Positions 7,018 to 17,461 of a DNA stretch of 64,000 nt are shown one piece after another. Source of the DNA: Xylanimonas ulmi. Its GTDB lineage: Bacteria; Actinomycetota; Actinomycetes; Actinomycetales; Cellulomonadaceae. The stretch's first letter is position 1; the number at the start of each line of letters is the position of its first letter. The position numbers and the translations under genes were made by a program. The DNA lies in the NCBI RefSeq assembly GCF_004216535.1, contig NZ_SGWX01000001.1, positions 868,001-932,000 of the forward strand, read 5' to 3'. The notes below the pieces were generated by a model. It saw nothing but the letters and a program-made list of their open reading frames with translations, was not told the DNA's origin and did not search any database.

Positions 7018-9435
7018 TCACTCAAGCCCGAGCCGATGGAGCATGTCCTGGTCGATGTCGGCGCGGAACGCCGGCGGCAGGTACAGCGTCGAGATCCCCG
7101 ATAGGTCCTGCGCGTCGACCACGTCGAGGGTCGTCGACCTGATGGTGGGCGGCAGGTGCGGATAGGTGGACGCGTCGTAGATGACCACCGTGTGGTCGCT
7201 CGGGTACGTCTGCTGGAGGTACTCGATCAAGATCGGGAAGTTGTGCCGCTCATAGCCGGCGAAGTTGAAGCCGTCGTCTCCCACGCACTCGGCCTGCCAG
7301 ATCAGCACGTGCATGGTCGGGTTGAGCTGGCGCCGCCGGATCAGCAGATCGGTGGCGTCAACCGTCTGAAGGCCCGCGCTGGACGGGTCGATGCCCAGAT
7401 CGGCGAAGAGCGAGTCCTGGGACGAGATGGCTGGGGCCATCTCGGCTCGCAAGCCGGCTGCCCGCGCCTGGCGGATCGACTCGTGCGTCGCCCACGCGAA
7501 GATGCCGGGGTGGCCGTAGAAGACCGCGCACACGCGCTTTCCCTCACGCAACGGGGTCAGCATCGCCTCGACCATCTCCCGGTAGGTGTCGATCCTCGGC
7601 TTTCCGTTGCCGTACAGGCCGTAGAGGGAGTGCGCGTTCGGGTTCAGCTCGTGGATCTGGAGTTCGGTGATCGGATCGGCGACGCAGTAGACCACCACGT
7701 CTGCGGCGATGATCTGGTCGCGTGCGCCCAAGGTCAGATCGCTGATGGGACGGATGCCCGATCCGACGACGACGAGCCGTCCGGGGCTGTCCCAATCCGT
7801 CCGCTCGAAGTGGCGGATGGCGTCGTCGATGTTGAGTGTGAGGCGATCGCGCCAATCGCTGGAGTTGGTGGTCGTCGTGGTGGCGTCGGTCGTGGTGATG
7901 TGCGTGGTGTCGATCGTGGTCGAGTGGACGTCGACGTGTGTTTCGATCGTGATGGAGTTCGCGTTGAAGTTGTTTGTGTTGATCGTGATCGGATCGATCG
8001 CCACGACGTCGGGCGGCAACTGGTCGCTGACCTTGGCCGCCAGACCCGCGGCCTCAAGCTCCCTCAGCGACTGCAGCCGCAGCCAGCCTCGCAGGCCTTG
8101 GCGCACCGCGTGCTGCTCGGCGGGGCTCAGCGCGCTCGCGCGCAGGACGGCCTGCGGATCGCGTTCGTACGCGTCGAGGCTGTCGGCCGAGGTCAGCGAG
8201 AGCAGAAAGGCGGTGAGCGGGGCCGCCGTCGTGTCCCCACGCGCCTTCAGGAGCGTGCGCGGGGTTCGTCCGATCGGCTTGGACAGCGCGACCGTCTCGA
8301 TCGCCCGCTCCACCGGAAGCCGGTGAATGCGCTCGAGGACCGTGGCGGCTTGGCGCAGCACCTTCGCACCGCGCGCGCTCACATGGCCGTCGAGCGAGTC
8401 GATGACGGTCCGCGCGTTGTCCAGAAGGTCGGCGCTGAGCTCCGCGTCCGGGTGGCTCACCGTGCGGGCGGCCTCCTGGAGGACCACCGTGAGCGCGTCT
8501 TGCAGCCGAGGGTTGTCGGCGGCGACCTCGACAAGGGCGGGGGCGAGAGTCTGGAACTCGTCCCACCATGCGCCGAGGCCGGGGAGCGTGCGGAACGGAC
8601 CATCGCGGAACGCCCGCAGGTCGTCCATGGACGTTCCCGTGTCGGTCGCCGCGAAAGAGCTGAAGAGGCTCTCCAACGAGCACGTGATGTCTGGCAGGCC
8701 GCGGATTCGGCCCTGCAACTCCCAGTCGCCGTCGCCGGCCTCGTCATCGCCCCACCGTCGCGAGATCGGGATCGTCACGCTCGTCGCGAGTTCGTCGGAG
8801 TCGGTGGTGAACGCCTCACTGCCGATCTGGTCGTCGTTGTCGCCGAAGGTGCCGTACCAGATCAGCTGCCAGCCGCTCATCGCGTTCTTGACGGCGGCCT
8901 TGACAAGGGCGCCCACGGACGCCTTGACGGTGGCGATGGCCGCGTCGATCTGCTCTTTGGTCGGTTTGGACAGGGCGTGCTGGAAGCTTGCGGCCACCTT
9001 CGTCACGCCGAGGTAGACGCCGTCGACGAAGGCCTGATAGCCCGCCTCCGCCAGACTGTTCGGCCACCCGTCCTCCTCCATGGCGACCACGATCACGCCG
9101 ATGATGCCCGGAAGGTTCTCGCCGACGAGACCTCGCACGAAGGGATCATTGACGGGGATCGGCTTGAGCTTGGTGTGCCAGAACCCGATCCCCTCGGGGA
9201 TCGCCACGGCGTCGCCAGCGTCGACGTCGGTGTTCCCGAGGTTCCCGTGCCCGCCCGTGCGTGAGTCGATGAGCGGCGCGCCGATGAGTCCGGAGCCCGG
9301 CTGCACCGCGTAGTTGTCGCCGTCGACCTTGAAGTAGCACGCCCACAGATACGGCTCGGCCGTCCCCCAACCGTCGCCCTCGTCGTGACAGACCAGGTAC
9401 TCCAAGCTCACATCGACGTTCTGAGTTGTCGCCAT
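7018..9435 (-). CDS. Borosin-type alpha-N-methyltransferase fused to an N-terminal region of unknown function
   Basis: An 805-residue protein. Residues about 552-790 are a tetrapyrrole-methylase-fold domain of the borosin (OphMA/SonM) kind: LVVVGSGIRPISDLTL, VYCVADP, FYGHPGIF, DATDLLIRRRQLNP, IWQAECVG and STLYLPP. Tyr608, Arg614, Tyr618 and Tyr640 have exactly the spacing of OphMA Tyr66, Arg72, Tyr76 and Tyr98, which catalyse SAM-dependent methylation of peptide-bond nitrogens. Residues 405-447 (FLLSLTSADSLDAY, DPQAVLRASALSPAEQ) look like a borosin precursor binding helix bundle. Residues 477-524 are Thr/Asn/Ile-rich and could be a core or a linker. Residues 1-400 are unrecognised. The ATG at 9435 has GGAG 5 bases before it; an ATG at 9495 is less likely. 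No separate precursor gene was found. A corrin-biosynthesis role is unlikely because of the match to the N-methyltransferases. Confidence 0.8.
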   Translation of the reverse strand: MATTQNVDVSLEYLVCHDEGDGWGTAEPYLWACYFKVDGDNYAVQPGSGLIGAPLIDSRTGGHGNLGNTDVDAGDAVAIPEGIGFWHTKLKPIPVNDPFVRGLVGENLPGIIGVIVVAMEEDGWPNSLAEAGYQAFVDGVYLGVTKVAASFQHALSKPTKEQIDAAIATVKASVGALVKAAVKNAMSGWQLIWYGTFGDNDDQIGSEAFTTDSDELATSVTIPISRRWGDDEAGDGDWELQGRIRGLPDITCSLESLFSSFAATDTGTSMDDLRAFRDGPFRTLPGLGAWWDEFQTLAPALVEVAADNPRLQDALTVVLQEAARTVSHPDAELSADLLDNARTVIDSLDGHVSARGAKVLRQAATVLERIHRLPVERAIETVALSKPIGRTPRTLLKARGDTTAAPLTAFLLSLTSADSLDAYERDPQAVLRASALSPAEQHAVRQGLRGWLRLQSLRELEAAGLAAKVSDQLPPDVVAIDPITINTNNFNANSITIETHVDVHSTTIDTTHITTTDATTTTTNSSDWRDRLTLNIDDAIRHFERTDWDSPGRLVVVGSGIRPISDLTLGARDQIIAADVVVYCVADPITELQIHELNPNAHSLYGLYGNGKPRIDTYREMVEAMLTPLREGKRVCAVFYGHPGIFAWATHESIRQARAAGLRAEMAPAISSQDSLFADLGIDPSSAGLQTVDATDLLIRRRQLNPTMHVLIWQAECVGDDGFNFAGYERHNFPILIEYLQQTYPSDHTVVIYDASTYPHLPPTIRSTTLDVVDAQDLSGISTLYLPPAFRADIDQDMLHRLGLE
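7864..8007 (-). other. Thr/Asn/Ile-rich segment inside the borosin-like protein, candidate core or linker
   Basis: Residues 477-524 of the 805-residue protein: beta-branched and polar residues in loose alternation, for example ITINTNNFNANSITIETH followed by STTIDTTHITTTDATTTTTN. It lies between the precursor-like helical segment and the methyltransferase. Low-complexity linkers also look like this, so a substrate role is a hypothesis. Confidence 0.4.
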
Positions 9436-13480: not shown

Positions 13481-13819
13481 TCAGCGTGTCCAAGAACCGG
13501 GTTCGCCCGTCGGCCACGCGAGCGACGCACGGCGCCGGCGCGATCCCCGGGCGGCGAGCCACGCATGGGTGATCTCGTCGAACCGGGCGTGGTCAACCCT
13601 CTCCAGGACCCGGTTGACCGTGCGCGCCGACGTCCACCCCCGCGAGAACCCGAACCCCAGGCCGATGCCCGCGGGTTGGTCGTGCGCCCAGTCCAGCACC
13701 AGCGTGACCCGGGTCGCGCCAGCGATCCCCGCAGCGACAACCAGCGAGAGCACACTCGCCAACGGTTCACCTGTGAACCTCGAGCGCGGGTCCGGGACCT
13801 GTCCCAGCGCCGTCATCAC
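13481..13819 (-). pseudogene. 5' remnant of an ISAs1-type transposase
   Basis: A leftward frame starting at 13819 encodes about 90 residues that look like the N-terminal domain of H-repeat/ISAs1 transposases (ALGQVPDPRSRFTGEPLASVLSLVVAAGIAGATRV, then ARTVNRVLERVDHARFDEI). After that the frame turns Arg-rich and stops before any of the catalytic DDE residues. It differs in sequence from the intact ISAs1-type copy at 16194-17315, so it is the relic of another insertion. It marks the left side of the A/T-rich transferred segment. Confidence 0.6.
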
Positions 13820-13984
13820 TGCTTACGGTGCGCCACAGGTCCGACGCAACGATGTGCCGTGACTGTGCGAGCAGCGATCGGGGTGAACCTACGCTCCGTA
13901 TGAAGTTTCCGTCGCTGAAGTCGGGTACGCAGCCGCGTTGCTGGACGCTCGCCATGTAACCACACCACTTAAATTCGTTCATTC
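13820..13984. other. Gene-free junction left of the ABC exporter
   Basis: About 165 bp in which the base composition falls from high G+C to the A/T-richer composition of the exporter gene. No gene or inverted repeat was recognised; the exporter stop codon abuts its right end. Confidence 0.4.
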
Positions 13985-15676
13985 TTAATCACCTTCCATA
14001 TTTATGGTTTGGTCAGCTGCGTCGGCAAGCGTAGAGCGATGTGTGCTTAGAATTACCGTCATTTGCGAGGAGAGCTTCTTGAGGGCGGAAATCAGGCGGG
14101 CCTCATTCGCAGCGTCCACCTGAGCCGTCGGTTCGTCGAGGATCAGCATTCGGGGGCGCCGCAGTAGTGCCCTTGCAATGGAGATCCGCTGTCGCTCTCC
14201 TCCGGAGAGGCTTACGCCGTGATCGTCAACGTGAGAATCTAGTCCGTTGGGCAGACGGCTGATTGTCTCGCTCAATCCGAGAAGCGAAACTACGTCAATC
14301 AAGTCATCTTCATGCGGAATATGGTGAACACCATAAGTGAGATTTTCGCGAATGGTGCCCCAGAAAATCGGAGCTTCTTGTTGCACGAATGCTGTGAAGC
14401 TGTTCGTTTCCTTGACGGAGGCAGGGTTGAGTACTGCGCCGTCTATACGTACCTCTCCTGCTTCCGGGTCCTCAAGCCCGCAGAGAATGTGCAGGAGAGT
14501 CGTCTTCCCACTTCCTGATGACCCCAGTATCGCAGTGATGCCGCCCGGCGTGGCCTCCATGGAAAGGTCCTTAAGGACAGGATGTTCCGATCCTGGATAG
14601 CTAAAGCTAATGTTCTGCGCAGCTACTTTAGCTGGCCGGGCACGCGTGAAGGCGGGGTTGGGTCCTGAATCATCTTCGACGGCATCTGCCGCTGCGGGCT
14701 CGTCGAGAACCTCGTTGATACGGTGAAGAGATCCCAGTCCTCGCTGAATGGTAGTCATTGCTTGAAACCCGACGATCACGGGTGGAATGAGGACGCCGAA
14801 GTACAACACGAAGGAGACAAACTCTGGGAGTCCCAGTGCGCCGGATGCAACCCTAACGCCTCCAAGGCCGAAGACGACGAGAAGCGCAAGGTTTGCCCCG
14901 AAGAGGAGAACAGGGGTAGTCATTGCGTCCCAGGTTGCAGCGCGCAGTCCAGCTCGCCATGATTGCTCGGCTCTCGTTACAAGACGGTCTCGCTCTTTAG
15001 ATTGCATACCGGAGGTGATCACCGTGATGAAGCCGCCGAGGACCCGATCAAGATCTGCTGATAGTGCACCCACGTACTGGTTGGCTTCTTCGGCTTCTTT
15101 TGTGATCTTTGAGAGGAACGTCCAGGATATAATCCCGGCGACCGCGAAGATGGCAAGGCTTGTGGAGAACAGCACCGGATCAATTATTACCATCAACACA
15201 ATTGCCCCGAGGAGTGTGAGGACTGCTCCTGTGGCCTCAATCGTGCCATCGCTCAGAATTGATCGGAGATTGCTGGCATCGTTGCCGACTCGTGCTATGA
15301 GATCCCCGCGGCGAAACCTGCGATAGCTCGAAAGTCTCCAGAACAGGATGTTTCCCACAAGTCTTTTCCGCACATCCAGTACTACATGCTCACCGGCCCG
15401 CAGGAGCACCCACGATTGCACACCTGAGACGACTACGTCTGATAGGAGCAATGCGCCCAGGACGCTTAACGGGGTTGCGAATCCGCCACCTTGCAAGGCA
15501 GCGTTTATGATCTGCATCATGGCGATTGGTTGCGCCACAGATATGCCGGCTCCGATAGCAGAAAGCGCGACTCCGGCGAAAATCTTCAAACGATGCGGCT
15601 CCAGGAAGGACCATAGTTCACGGGCGCGAGCTTGGGGACCCAAGTCGGGGAACTGGCTATCAGTCAGTGTTTCCAC
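13985..15676 (-). CDS. ABC exporter, fused membrane and ATPase domains, horizontally acquired
   Basis: A 563-residue type IV ABC half-transporter. Membrane segments span about residues 25-310. The ATPase follows, with Walker A GSSGSGKTT, signature SLSGGERQRISIARAL, Walker B MLILDEPTAQVD and H-loop STHRS. The length and lack of a peptidase domain fit exporters of lipids, drugs or lantibiotic-like peptides. Its DNA is visibly richer in A and T than any neighbour, and its codons often end in A or T, so it came from elsewhere. The start is a GTG at 15676 with AGGAGGAGAAGGGA upstream. It follows a truncated CPBP protease gene on the same strand, a pairing common in bacteriocin clusters. Substrate unknown; a half-transporter should dimerise. 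Confidence 0.85.
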   Translation of the reverse strand: METLTDSQFPDLGPQARARELWSFLEPHRLKIFAGVALSAIGAGISVAQPIAMMQIINAALQGGGFATPLSVLGALLLSDVVVSGVQSWVLLRAGEHVVLDVRKRLVGNILFWRLSSYRRFRRGDLIARVGNDASNLRSILSDGTIEATGAVLTLLGAIVLMVIIDPVLFSTSLAIFAVAGIISWTFLSKITKEAEEANQYVGALSADLDRVLGGFITVITSGMQSKERDRLVTRAEQSWRAGLRAATWDAMTTPVLLFGANLALLVVFGLGGVRVASGALGLPEFVSFVLYFGVLIPPVIVGFQAMTTIQRGLGSLHRINEVLDEPAAADAVEDDSGPNPAFTRARPAKVAAQNISFSYPGSEHPVLKDLSMEATPGGITAILGSSGSGKTTLLHILCGLEDPEAGEVRIDGAVLNPASVKETNSFTAFVQQEAPIFWGTIRENLTYGVHHIPHEDDLIDVVSLLGLSETISRLPNGLDSHVDDHGVSLSGGERQRISIARALLRRPRMLILDEPTAQVDAANEARLISALKKLSSQMTVILSTHRSTLADAADQTINMEGD

Positions 15677-15707
15677 GGTAAGTCCCTTCTCCTCCTAGCC
15701 AAGGTGG

Positions 15708-15831
15708 TCAGGTCCTATCCTGATCATGCGAGATGGTAACAACGGTGTTATAAAGGAGATGTGCTATCAAGGGCGGAACAATTCCGTTCACTACAAAGAG
15801 TGCGCCCAGAAGCGTCCCTACACAAATACTA
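15708..15831 (-). pseudogene. C-terminal remnant of a CPBP (CAAX/Abi) intramembrane protease
   Basis: A leftward frame ending in TGA at 15708 encodes about 40 residues including GTLLGALFVVNGIVPPLIAH and LLYNTVV. This is the final membrane helix pattern of CPBP proteases, with the conserved His and Asn (P-x-x-x-H-x-x-x-N). The upstream part is cut off exactly at the inferred TA target of the IS630-type element. CPBP proteins often provide immunity or maturation in bacteriocin loci, so the exporter downstream may have come from such a locus. Too short to be functional. Confidence 0.65.
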
Positions 15832-15870
15832 ACAGGTGCGTTGATTGGGTAACTCCGGCATAATGGTCTG

Positions 15871-16145
15871 GTGCGTGAGAATGATGGCCGGAAGATGTCG
15901 AAGGCGACGAAGGAAGAGGTTCGCCTGAGGGCGGTGGCGGCGGTGCGCGAGGGGCATCATCCGGAGGATGTGGCCTTGTCGTTGGGGTTGCATCGTAAGT
16001 CGGTGTACCCGTGGTTGGCTGCTGAGCGGGCGGGTGGCCGTGAGGCGTTGATCGCCAGCGTGCCCCGGGGAAGGCGCCGAAGCTCACCGCGGAGCAGCAG
16101 GCGCGGGTGCGGGCGATCGTGGTGGGGAAGAGTCCGCGGCAGGAC
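15871..16145 (+). pseudogene. IS630-type transposase, 5' part (HTH region)
   Basis: The frame starting near 15871-15895 encodes the helix-turn-helix part (EEVRLRAVAAVREGHHPEDV, LGLHRKSVYPWLAAERAGG). Around 16056-16066 the family-like reading shifts by one base into APGKAPKLTAEQQARVRAIV and VVGKSPRQD, so a -1 frameshift is needed, either programmed or a mutation. The gene is then broken at 16145 by the inserted ISAs1-type element. The remaining part resumes at 17472. Confidence 0.7.
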
Positions 16146-17461
16146 CAGGGCTCCGGCATTGTCGGTTCTGTAGGGCTGCGACCTGCGGTGTTGTCATGCT
16201 GTGAGGATGGCTCGGATGGGTCTGTCGAGGTCGCGGGCGTGATGTCGTAGGGCGTGGGCGACGTTGGTCCATCCGGTGGTGCGCAGGATGGCGATGACGG
16301 TGTTCCTGATGGAGGCCATGACCTGCGGGGTCGCCCCGGCCGCGGCCGCGGAGCGGTCCTCGTCGAACGTCACGTCCCGTACCCAGTGCAACTTGTTCTC
16401 CACCGCCCAGTGGCCCTGGATCCACGCGGCCAGGGTGGCCGGGTCTGCGGCGGTGACGTCGGCGGAGGTGATGACGTAGACGACCTCGACGCTCTTCTTG
16501 CCCTTGACGGTGACGGTGCGGCGGAGTTGAGCGACCTGGACGGTGCCTTCGAACTCGATCCAGGCGGGTGCCTGGAGGACCTTGATCGTGCGGGTCGCGC
16601 GACGCCCGTGCCCGCGCTGGGTGGTGGTCCAGGCCGGGACGTCTTTCCAGGGCAGCGCTTTGAGCCGGGTGTGCAACGTCTTCTGGTTGCCCTTGACTGC
16701 CAAGACGAAGTCGGCTCCCGCGGCGCGGATCTTCGCGGCGGTCTCCCGCTGGGCGTGGAGGGCGTCCATGGTCACGACGGCGCCGTCCAGGTCCAACCGT
16801 TCGATCAGTGTGCGTGCCGCGGTGATCTCCGAACTCTTGTCGTCGATGCCGACCTGCCCGGCCACAACACCGGTGGTGTGCTCGAGTGCCGCGACGAGGA
16901 ACGAGACGGCCGCCCCGCGCTTGCGTGCACCGCGGACCGCCTTCCCGTCGATCGCGAGAACCCTGCGCCCGCCGACCGTCCGGACCCGGGTCACGGCCCA
17001 TGCACCGAGCGTCTGGTCCAACCCGTCGGCGTCCAGGCGGGCGAACACGCGCCGGAACGTCGACTCGTCCGCTACCTTGCGCATCCCGAGCACGGCCAGT
17101 CGGGCCGGGCCGGCGTCCTTGGCCCACTGCGCGATCGCGGTGAACCCGCGCGCCCCGGTCAGCACCGCCCCGACCGCGACCGCGAGGAGCGCCGCCACGG
17201 TGTGCCGACGCCCGCGCGGGTCACGAGGGTCGACCACCCCGGCGAGCATCTCCAACAGCAGCGCCTGCCGCGAGACATGCTTGGACGACGACGCTGGGAC
17301 AGGAGACGATGACATCGCGTGGGCGTGTTCCCTCGGTCGGACGGCTGTGTAGGAACTACCGATCCAACCCGGACGGGGCACGCCCACGCACCCACGTCCA
17401 CCTGCAAAGACGCAGGTCACACGCCCATCAGCCCGCTACCGGCGACTTTGCCGGGCCCCTG
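16146..17461 (-). mobile_element. ISAs1-type insertion sequence with 10-bp target duplication
   Basis: A 1316-bp element bounded by imperfect inverted repeats: left end CAGGGCTCCGGCATTGTCG and, on the opposite strand at the right end, CAGGGGCCCGGCAAAGTCG (15 of 19 match). It is flanked by a perfect duplication GCGGCAGGAC at 16136-16145 and 17462-17471. Removing it and one copy restores the IS630-type transposase frame. Length, repeats and duplication size all fit the ISAs1 family. Confidence 0.92.
16194..17315 (-). CDS. ISAs1-family transposase
   Basis: A 373-residue DDE transposase filling the ISAs1-type element. The N-terminal H-repeat-associated domain contains AGVVDPRDPRGRRHTVAALL and FRRVFARLDAD. 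The catalytic core has AIDGKAVRGARKRG, then VVTMDALHAQRETA, FVLAVKGNQKTLH and a late HWAVENKLHWVRDVTF carrying the Glu. The ATG at 17315 is preferred over longer in-frame starts because the upstream residues are unlike the family and it follows GAGGGAA. All expected catalytic residues are present and the frame is uninterrupted, so the element may be active. Confidence 0.9.
   Translation of the reverse strand: MSSSPVPASSSKHVSRQALLLEMLAGVVDPRDPRGRRHTVAALLAVAVGAVLTGARGFTAIAQWAKDAGPARLAVLGMRKVADESTFRRVFARLDADGLDQTLGAWAVTRVRTVGGRRVLAIDGKAVRGARKRGAAVSFLVAALEHTTGVVAGQVGIDDKSSEITAARTLIERLDLDGAVVTMDALHAQRETAAKIRAAGADFVLAVKGNQKTLHTRLKALPWKDVPAWTTTQRGHGRRATRTIKVLQAPAWIEFEGTVQVAQLRRTVTVKGKKSVEVVYVITSADVTAADPATLAAWIQGHWAVENKLHWVRDVTFDEDRSAAAAGATPQVMASIRNTVIAILRTTGWTNVAHALRHHARDLDRPIRAILTA

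What the first reader, a model, noticed from the sequence alone, without database searches (positions are those of the whole stretch)
7018..7782. Borosin-type alpha-N-methyltransferase domain in an actinobacterial multidomain protein
Seen: residues 552-790 carry every core motif of the OphMA/SonM methylase, and Tyr608, Arg614, Tyr618 and Tyr640 keep the exact 6/4/22 spacing of the four catalytic residues of OphMA. Known: these enzymes methylate backbone amides of ribosomally made peptides; characterised ones are fungal fusions or bacterial split systems. Inference: this 805-residue protein with the methylase at the C terminus and no C-terminal core peptide is a different architecture.
Basis: partly seen in the sequence, partly recalled or inferred. 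Interest (0 to 1): 0.9.

Follow-up and report, generated by a model that had tools for sequence, protein, structure and literature searches.

The report
Self-methylating peptide enzyme, fused backwards
This bacterial protein carries an enzyme of the kind that methylates peptide backbones, with its probable peptide substrate built in just ahead of the enzyme instead of behind it; the general layout was reported in 2024, but the peptide's make-up and the large front domain are unexplained.

Summary
Residues 550-805 of an 805-aa minus-strand protein (7018-9435) are a borosin alpha-N-methyltransferase: dbOphM E 8e-66, OphMA 3e-59, SonM 9e-48, against 1e-3 for the best corrin methylase. Tyr608, Arg614, Tyr618 and Tyr640 align with OphMA without gaps.

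The interpretation needs correcting. The substrate parts lie in front of the enzyme: a SonA-type borosin binding domain (residues ~406-455; SonA chains are the best PDB hits, E 8e-4, or 2e-8 with two split precursors added to the profile), then a Thr/Asn-rich segment (479-526), then the methylase. Between Arthrobacter ISL-48 and G929 that segment has 14 synonymous and no amino-acid changes in 51 codons, while its flanks diverge; in the window's own clade it is less tightly kept.

C-terminal-methylase borosins are in print: 'type 0', and 'type XI' with an unknown N-terminal domain (XulAM; Xu 2024, PMC11395268). The window protein fits type XI and may even be XulAM (untested).

Not seen in the sections I read: the SonA-like domain and hydrophilic core in this layout, and the N-terminal domain occurring alone (4 of 7 carriers in the genus of ISL-48) beside a conserved 139-aa gene. 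Methylation itself is untested.

The parts
7018..9435 (-). Whole gene, 805-aa fused borosin-type protein, ATG start
   Evidence: 100% at G000:C1:875021-877435
8686..9435 (-). Residues 1-250: N-terminal domain of unknown function (low-confidence secondary structure: beta strands with a helical insert)
   Evidence: no significant Pfam, NCBIfam, PHROG or PDB sequence match; AF2 mean pLDDT 44; found without the borosin part in 4 loci
8242..8685 (-). Residues 251-398: helical region, the least conserved of the long segments
   Evidence: AF2 block pLDDT 51-77 at residues 281-390, lower before; 35-41% identity of the window to the seven Micrococcaceae-type copies
8002..8226 (-). Residues 404-478: borosin binding domain (SonA-like part ~406-455) and following helix
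   Evidence: profile hits to SonA chains E 8e-4 and 2e-8 with two split-precursor domains added; LigA Pfam in 5 of 5 members at E up to 1, below gathering score in the window member
7858..8001 (-). Residues 479-526: Thr/Asn/Ser-rich candidate core peptide
   Evidence: position after the BBD as in SonA
7789..7857 (-). Residues 527-549: variable linker between core and methylase
   Evidence: 39-44% identity of the window to the three fused Micrococcaceae-type copies
7021..7788 (-). Residues 550-805: alpha-N-methyltransferase domain
   Evidence: Pfam TP_methylase E 3.5e-18
7612..7614 (-). Tyr608 (aligned with the OphMA tyrosine recalled as Y66)
7594..7596 (-). Arg614 (OphMA R72, recalled numbering)
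7582..7584 (-). Tyr618 (OphMA Y76, recalled numbering)
7516..7518 (-). Tyr640 (OphMA Y98, recalled numbering)

Best explanation
A self-modifying ('fused') borosin of the recently named type XI. Order: unknown N-terminal domain, helical region, SonA-like borosin binding domain, Thr/Asn-rich core, short linker, methylase. Most likely the binding domain docks on the methylase of the same or the partner subunit of a homodimer and feeds the core through the active site, where Tyr608, Tyr618 and Arg614 polarise the amide, Tyr640 helps to hold SAM, and backbone amides of the core are methylated iteratively. Shown by sequence: the methylase, its active-site residues, the binding domain, the order of parts, and the protein-level conservation of the core in one clade. 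Inferred: dimer, docking, which amides are methylated, whether a peptide is later cut out.
For: Methylase to OphM/SonM at E 1e-65 to 1e-47 with all four active-site residues. A five-row profile of the segment in front has SonA chains as its seven best PDB hits (E 8e-4 to 9e-4); with two split-precursor domains added, SonA rises to 2e-8, followed by gallate dioxygenase (0.016), an unrelated-looking membrane protein (0.1) and the dbOphMA fusion protein (0.14). The binding-domain profile picked small ORFs beside the methylase in 2 of 5 plasmid loci scanned (L031 E 1e-8, L032 E 8e-6; none in L028-L030). Segment 479-526 has the lowest pN/pS of six segments in two of three Micrococcaceae-type pairings (ISL-48 v. 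G929: 51/51 residues, 0 nonsynonymous and 14 synonymous changes; UBA6021 v. G929: 49/51, 0.05) and the second lowest in the third (ISL-48 v. UBA6021: 49/51, 0.07, against 0.04 for residues 1-250). No second binding domain found in the genome (next hit E 0.42), so no separate precursor is apparent. Hydrophilic cores have precedent: KchMA methylates some acidic residues (PMC11395268).
Against: No methylation data. The candidate core is hydrophilic (GRAVY -0.33 in the window, to -1.06), whereas a review calls the cores tested in one large study primarily hydrophobic (PMC11285071, passages). In the window clade it is not more conserved than the methylase or residues 1-250: window v. ISL-48 29/48, pN/pS 0.41 against 0.35 and 0.36; window v. 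G051 39/48, 0.27 against 0.16 and 0.22. No protease among ten neighbouring ORFs scanned. AF2 models too poor to test docking. The binding-domain profile also gave one unrelated hit (E 7e-5) among 609 control ORFs, so the L032 hit is only modestly better than chance.
Confidence: 0.8

Rival explanations
1. The Thr/Asn-rich segment is only a tether; the methylase acts in trans on another protein or peptide, for instance a separate precursor.
For: The segment is hydrophilic and looks like a linker by composition; borosin methylases acting in trans are widespread in bacteria (PMC8429565; PMC11285071); in the window clade the segment is not more conserved than the folded domains.
Against: A SonA-like binding domain sits directly before it; no other such domain found in the genome below E 0.4; 0 amino-acid changes against 14 synonymous ones in 51 codons between ISL-48 and G929 is unlike a free linker, and the true linker (527-549) is variable.
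Confidence: 0.12
2. A degenerate or repurposed borosin: the methylase is kept as a scaffold and no longer methylates.
For: Patchy distribution; four of seven carriers in one genus lack the module; two assemblies (G051, UBA6021) show frame breaks.
Against: Active-site residues kept in the five fused copies; methylase pN/pS 0.09 in all three Micrococcaceae-type pairings, 0.16 for window v. G051 and 0.35 for window v. ISL-48.
Confidence: 0.06
3. An ordinary corrin/siroheme-type tetrapyrrole methylase fused to other domains.
For: Pfam TP_methylase E 3.5e-18 and weak NCBIfam hits to YabN and CysG.
Against: PDB matches to borosin enzymes are over 40 to 60 orders of magnitude better than to CbiF; binding domain in front; the genome has two other TP_methylase loci.
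Confidence: 0.02

Closest known systems
Type XI borosins (XulAM, WP_130412518.1; Xu et al. 2024, PMC11395268)
   Same: Methylase at the C terminus, N-terminal domain of unknown function, one polypeptide, bacterial.
   Different: Sequence of XulAM not available here, so identity or distance untested; no biochemistry of XulAM in the sections read. Binding domain and core were located here by sequence.
Type 0 borosins (Lee et al. 2024, as described in PMC11395268; original not held)
   Same: Core N-terminal to the methylase in one chain.
   Different: As described by Xu et al., the N-terminal unknown domain sets type XI apart from type 0.
Split borosin SonM/SonA (type IV; PMC8429565)
   Same: SonA-like binding domain followed by core; methylase matches SonM, whose catalytic set is Y58, R67, Y71, Y93.
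   Different: Two proteins there; here they are joined in the order SonA-SonM behind 400 more residues. Candidate core here is 48 residues and Thr/Asn-rich, against ten in SonA.
Fungal OphMA/dbOphMA (type I)
   Same: Best sequence match of the methylase; fused substrate.
   Different: OphMA order is methylase-clasp-core; here it is binding domain-core-methylase.

Membership tests
Borosin | OphM/SonM-type alpha-N-methyltransferase domain | tested here: met
   E 8e-66 to 9e-48 against 1e-3 for corrin methylases
Borosin | Catalytic Tyr/Arg/Tyr and SAM-side Tyr | tested here: met
   Tyr608, Arg614, Tyr618, Tyr640 in gap-free alignment with OphMA
Borosin | Borosin binding domain in cis or in a precursor | tested here: met
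   SonA chains are the best PDB hits
Borosin | Core peptide presented to the methylase | tested here: inconclusive
   Segment 479-526 by position and constraint in one clade; use as substrate not shown
Borosin | Backbone N-methylation of the core | not testable with these tools
   needs mass spectrometry
Borosin | Active homodimer | not testable with these tools
   single-chain AF2 models already too poor
Type XI borosin (Xu 2024) | C-terminal methylase plus N-terminal domain of unknown function | tested here: met
Type XI borosin (Xu 2024) | Sequence kinship with XulAM | not tested
   I had no means to fetch WP_130412518.1 by accession
OphMA-type (type I) borosin | Core at the C terminus after the methylase and clasp | tested here: not met
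   the chain ends with the methylase
Corrin/siroheme methylase | Best match to CbiF/CobA/CysG | tested here: not met

The most novel reading that the evidence does not exclude
The methylated stretch is never released. It lies between two large domains, has no Lys or Arg in any of the five fused copies, and is kept almost letter for letter in the Micrococcaceae-type copies, so it could be a permanent backbone-methylated, protease-resistant joint of a working protein: a borosin used to modify a protein rather than to make a natural product. The N-terminal domain, which also exists without the borosin part, would be the functional partner.
Probability: 0.2. Interest if true: 0.85.

Novelty: new member of a known kind. 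Interest (0 to 1): 0.48.

Why it matters
In the sections read, type XI borosins were defined by sequence; the biochemistry there was on KchMA. This case gives a testable anatomy (where the binding domain and core are), a natural comparison (the same N-terminal domain with and without the borosin module), and a core unlike the primarily hydrophobic ones of the earlier study, so it can widen the known substrate range of backbone N-methylation or show a use other than a released peptide.

Tried and rejected
Structure prediction: full length with five rows gave mean pLDDT 40; residues 1-255 gave 44. A Foldseek search with the latter found nothing at E below 0.001 (183 matches up to E 10) and was discarded. 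So the fold of the N-terminal domain is unknown here; a C2-like sandwich was only my impression from the sequence. Searches of Pfam, NCBIfam, PHROGs and PDB for it also gave nothing significant. Viral contigs gave no relatives of the borosin module or of the N-terminal domain; phages none. Plasmids gave matches to the methylase part only, in 13 records; five of the 13 were opened. A phylum sample with the borosin module gave the window's genome and one weak match (E 8.5e-4), 2 of 396.

A tree of nine N-terminal domains could not settle whether the borosin module was lost or gained: the tree needs two changes, its well-supported branches force only one. I considered that the 139-aa neighbour gene of the Micrococcaceae-type copies might be a general part of the system, but it was not found in the window's genome or G051.

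Papers: Lee 2024 and Imani 2022 are not held. Type 0 is therefore taken from Xu 2024; my memory of the Lee abstract (core N-terminal to the methylase, tested by experiment) is recall. OphMA residue numbers are recalled; SonM numbers are from PMC8429565 (outline, results part 1 of 4 and passages). PMC11285071 was seen as passages only. 'Xul' = Xylanimonas ulmi is my inference; the organism of the window was not established. The library was searched for print on this protein or layout only.

Full report
Observation. The minus-strand ORF 9435-7018 codes for 805 residues; a search of its 3.97-Mb genome with the whole protein finds no second copy. Residues 546-805 match borosin enzymes in the PDB at E 8e-66 (dbOphM), 3e-59 (OphMA) and 9e-48 (SonM); the best corrin methylase is at 1e-3. 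The alignment with OphMA shows no gap before residue 770, and Tyr608, Arg614, Tyr618 and Tyr640 face the same residues. Their roles are inferred from SonM, where Y58, R67 and Y71 are said to stabilise the deprotonated amide and Y93 affects SAM binding (PMC8429565, passages).

In front of the methylase lies a borosin binding domain. A profile from five fused copies has SonA chains as its seven best PDB hits (E 8e-4 to 9e-4). Adding the binding domains of two plasmid split precursors brings SonA to 2e-8; next come gallate dioxygenase (0.016), a hypothetical membrane protein (0.1) and the dbOphMA fusion protein (0.14). This fits the statement that the BBD is homologous to part of the OphMA clasp and has structural homologues capping dioxygenases (PMC8429565, results part 1 of 4). 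Pfam LigA is found in 5 of 5 members at E up to 1; in the window member it scores 20.4 bits, below the gathering score of 25.3. The five-row profile found small ORFs next to methylases in L031 (E 1e-8) and L032 (8e-6), 2 of 5 plasmid loci, among 575 ORFs. In 609 control ORFs it found the related copy in L044 and one unrelated hit at 7e-5, so the L032 hit is only modestly better than chance and the L031 hit is sound.

The candidate core. Between the binding domain and the methylase lie 48 residues that are 54% Thr/Asn/Ser in the window and G051 (69-73% in the three Micrococcaceae-type copies), without Lys, Arg or Cys and with one Pro, in all five fused copies. The best 55-residue window of the protein has 17 Thr; the highest of 2000 shuffles has 15. 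Conservation by segment: ISL-48 v. G929, 51 of 51 residues identical with 14 synonymous and no nonsynonymous changes, while the BBD is 58 of 75, the linker 19 of 23 and the methylase 232 of 257. The other two Micrococcaceae-type pairs give 49 of 51. In window v. G051 (39 of 48) and window v. ISL-48 (29 of 48) the core is better kept than BBD and linker by pN/pS, but less well than the methylase and residues 1-250. The strong constraint is thus seen in one clade only. It is what a substrate would show and is against a plain tether there, but it does not prove methylation.

The N-terminal part. Residues 1-250 and 251-398 have no significant family or PDB match, and structure prediction failed. 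The domain is rare. In samples of the window's phylum and order only the window's own genome has it (1 of 396, 1 of 396). In its family, 13 of 150 genomes had any match to the whole protein: the window's genome and G051 (same genus, in pieces) along its length, and eleven others with partial matches, ten of them to the methylase. The GTDB contig scan gave 4 loci. In a sample of the genus of Arthrobacter sp. ISL-48, 7 of 198 genomes have it: three with the borosin module (ISL-48; G929; G1057, which I take for UBA6021 from its coordinates, frame-broken) and four ending after 411-417 residues. tblastn finds no remnant of the module in the four short-form loci, though L043 ends at the contig edge about 50 bases after the gene, so only three of the four are informative. 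All seven Micrococcaceae-type loci read (L002-L005, L041-L043) have a conserved 139-aa gene just upstream; it was not found in the window's genome or G051. So the borosin module is an optional part of this protein family; whether it was lost or gained is unsettled.

Surroundings. The gene ends 14 bases from a convergent FecCD transporter gene and starts about 150 bases from a divergent short-chain dehydrogenase ORF; a TetR regulator, an ABC-2 transporter, an ABC exporter and transposase pieces follow. No protease or separate precursor was recognised among the ten neighbouring ORFs scanned, and no second binding domain in the genome (next hit E 0.42). The genome has three TP_methylase loci, of which this is one.

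Comparison with the known. Xu et al. 2024 (PMC11395268; sections read) list types 0-X, with type 0 having the core N-terminal and the methylase C-terminal, and add type XI for proteins with an N-terminal domain of unknown function, naming XulAM. The window protein meets that definition. I could not obtain XulAM's sequence; the window may hold the same or a close protein. What I add, and did not see in those sections, is the location of a SonA-like binding domain and a Thr/Asn-rich core, and the free-standing form of the N-terminal domain.

Mechanism. Most likely autocatalytic methylation of the internal core within a homodimer, as in OphMA, with the SonA-like order. Whether the product is released (needing an unlinked protease) or stays as a methylated joint is open; I give the second 0.2.

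Noticed in passing
L003:7577-7993, also L002, L004, L005, L041, L042, L043: A Trp/Cys-rich 139-aa gene sits a few bases upstream of the N-terminal-domain gene in seven of seven Micrococcaceae-type loci read; no significant Pfam match in the two members scanned.
   Followed up: partly
L006/L044 (G051) and L002 (UBA6021): Both copies show a frame break near residue 80 of the protein, and G051 another near residue 760; sequencing error or decay, not told apart. Intact copies exist.
   Followed up: no
13481-17420: A low-GC stretch with an ABC exporter gene (13985-15676, GC3 0.58) between transposase pieces, likely a horizontally acquired patch.
   Followed up: partly
L007 (G017): A 261-aa TP-methylase-type frame (26% identity to the borosin domain) lies beside frames that look to me like a TfuA-type protein and a dioxygenase (recalled labels); possibly another RiPP cluster.
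   Followed up: no
L028 and L030: Azospirillum and Mycetohabitans megaplasmids carry 798- and 738-aa borosin-type proteins with the methylase near the N terminus, each next to large hypothetical genes and a gene annotated StrG.
   Followed up: no
375-2648: NERD-domain protein with UvrD-like helicase C-terminus.
   Followed up: no
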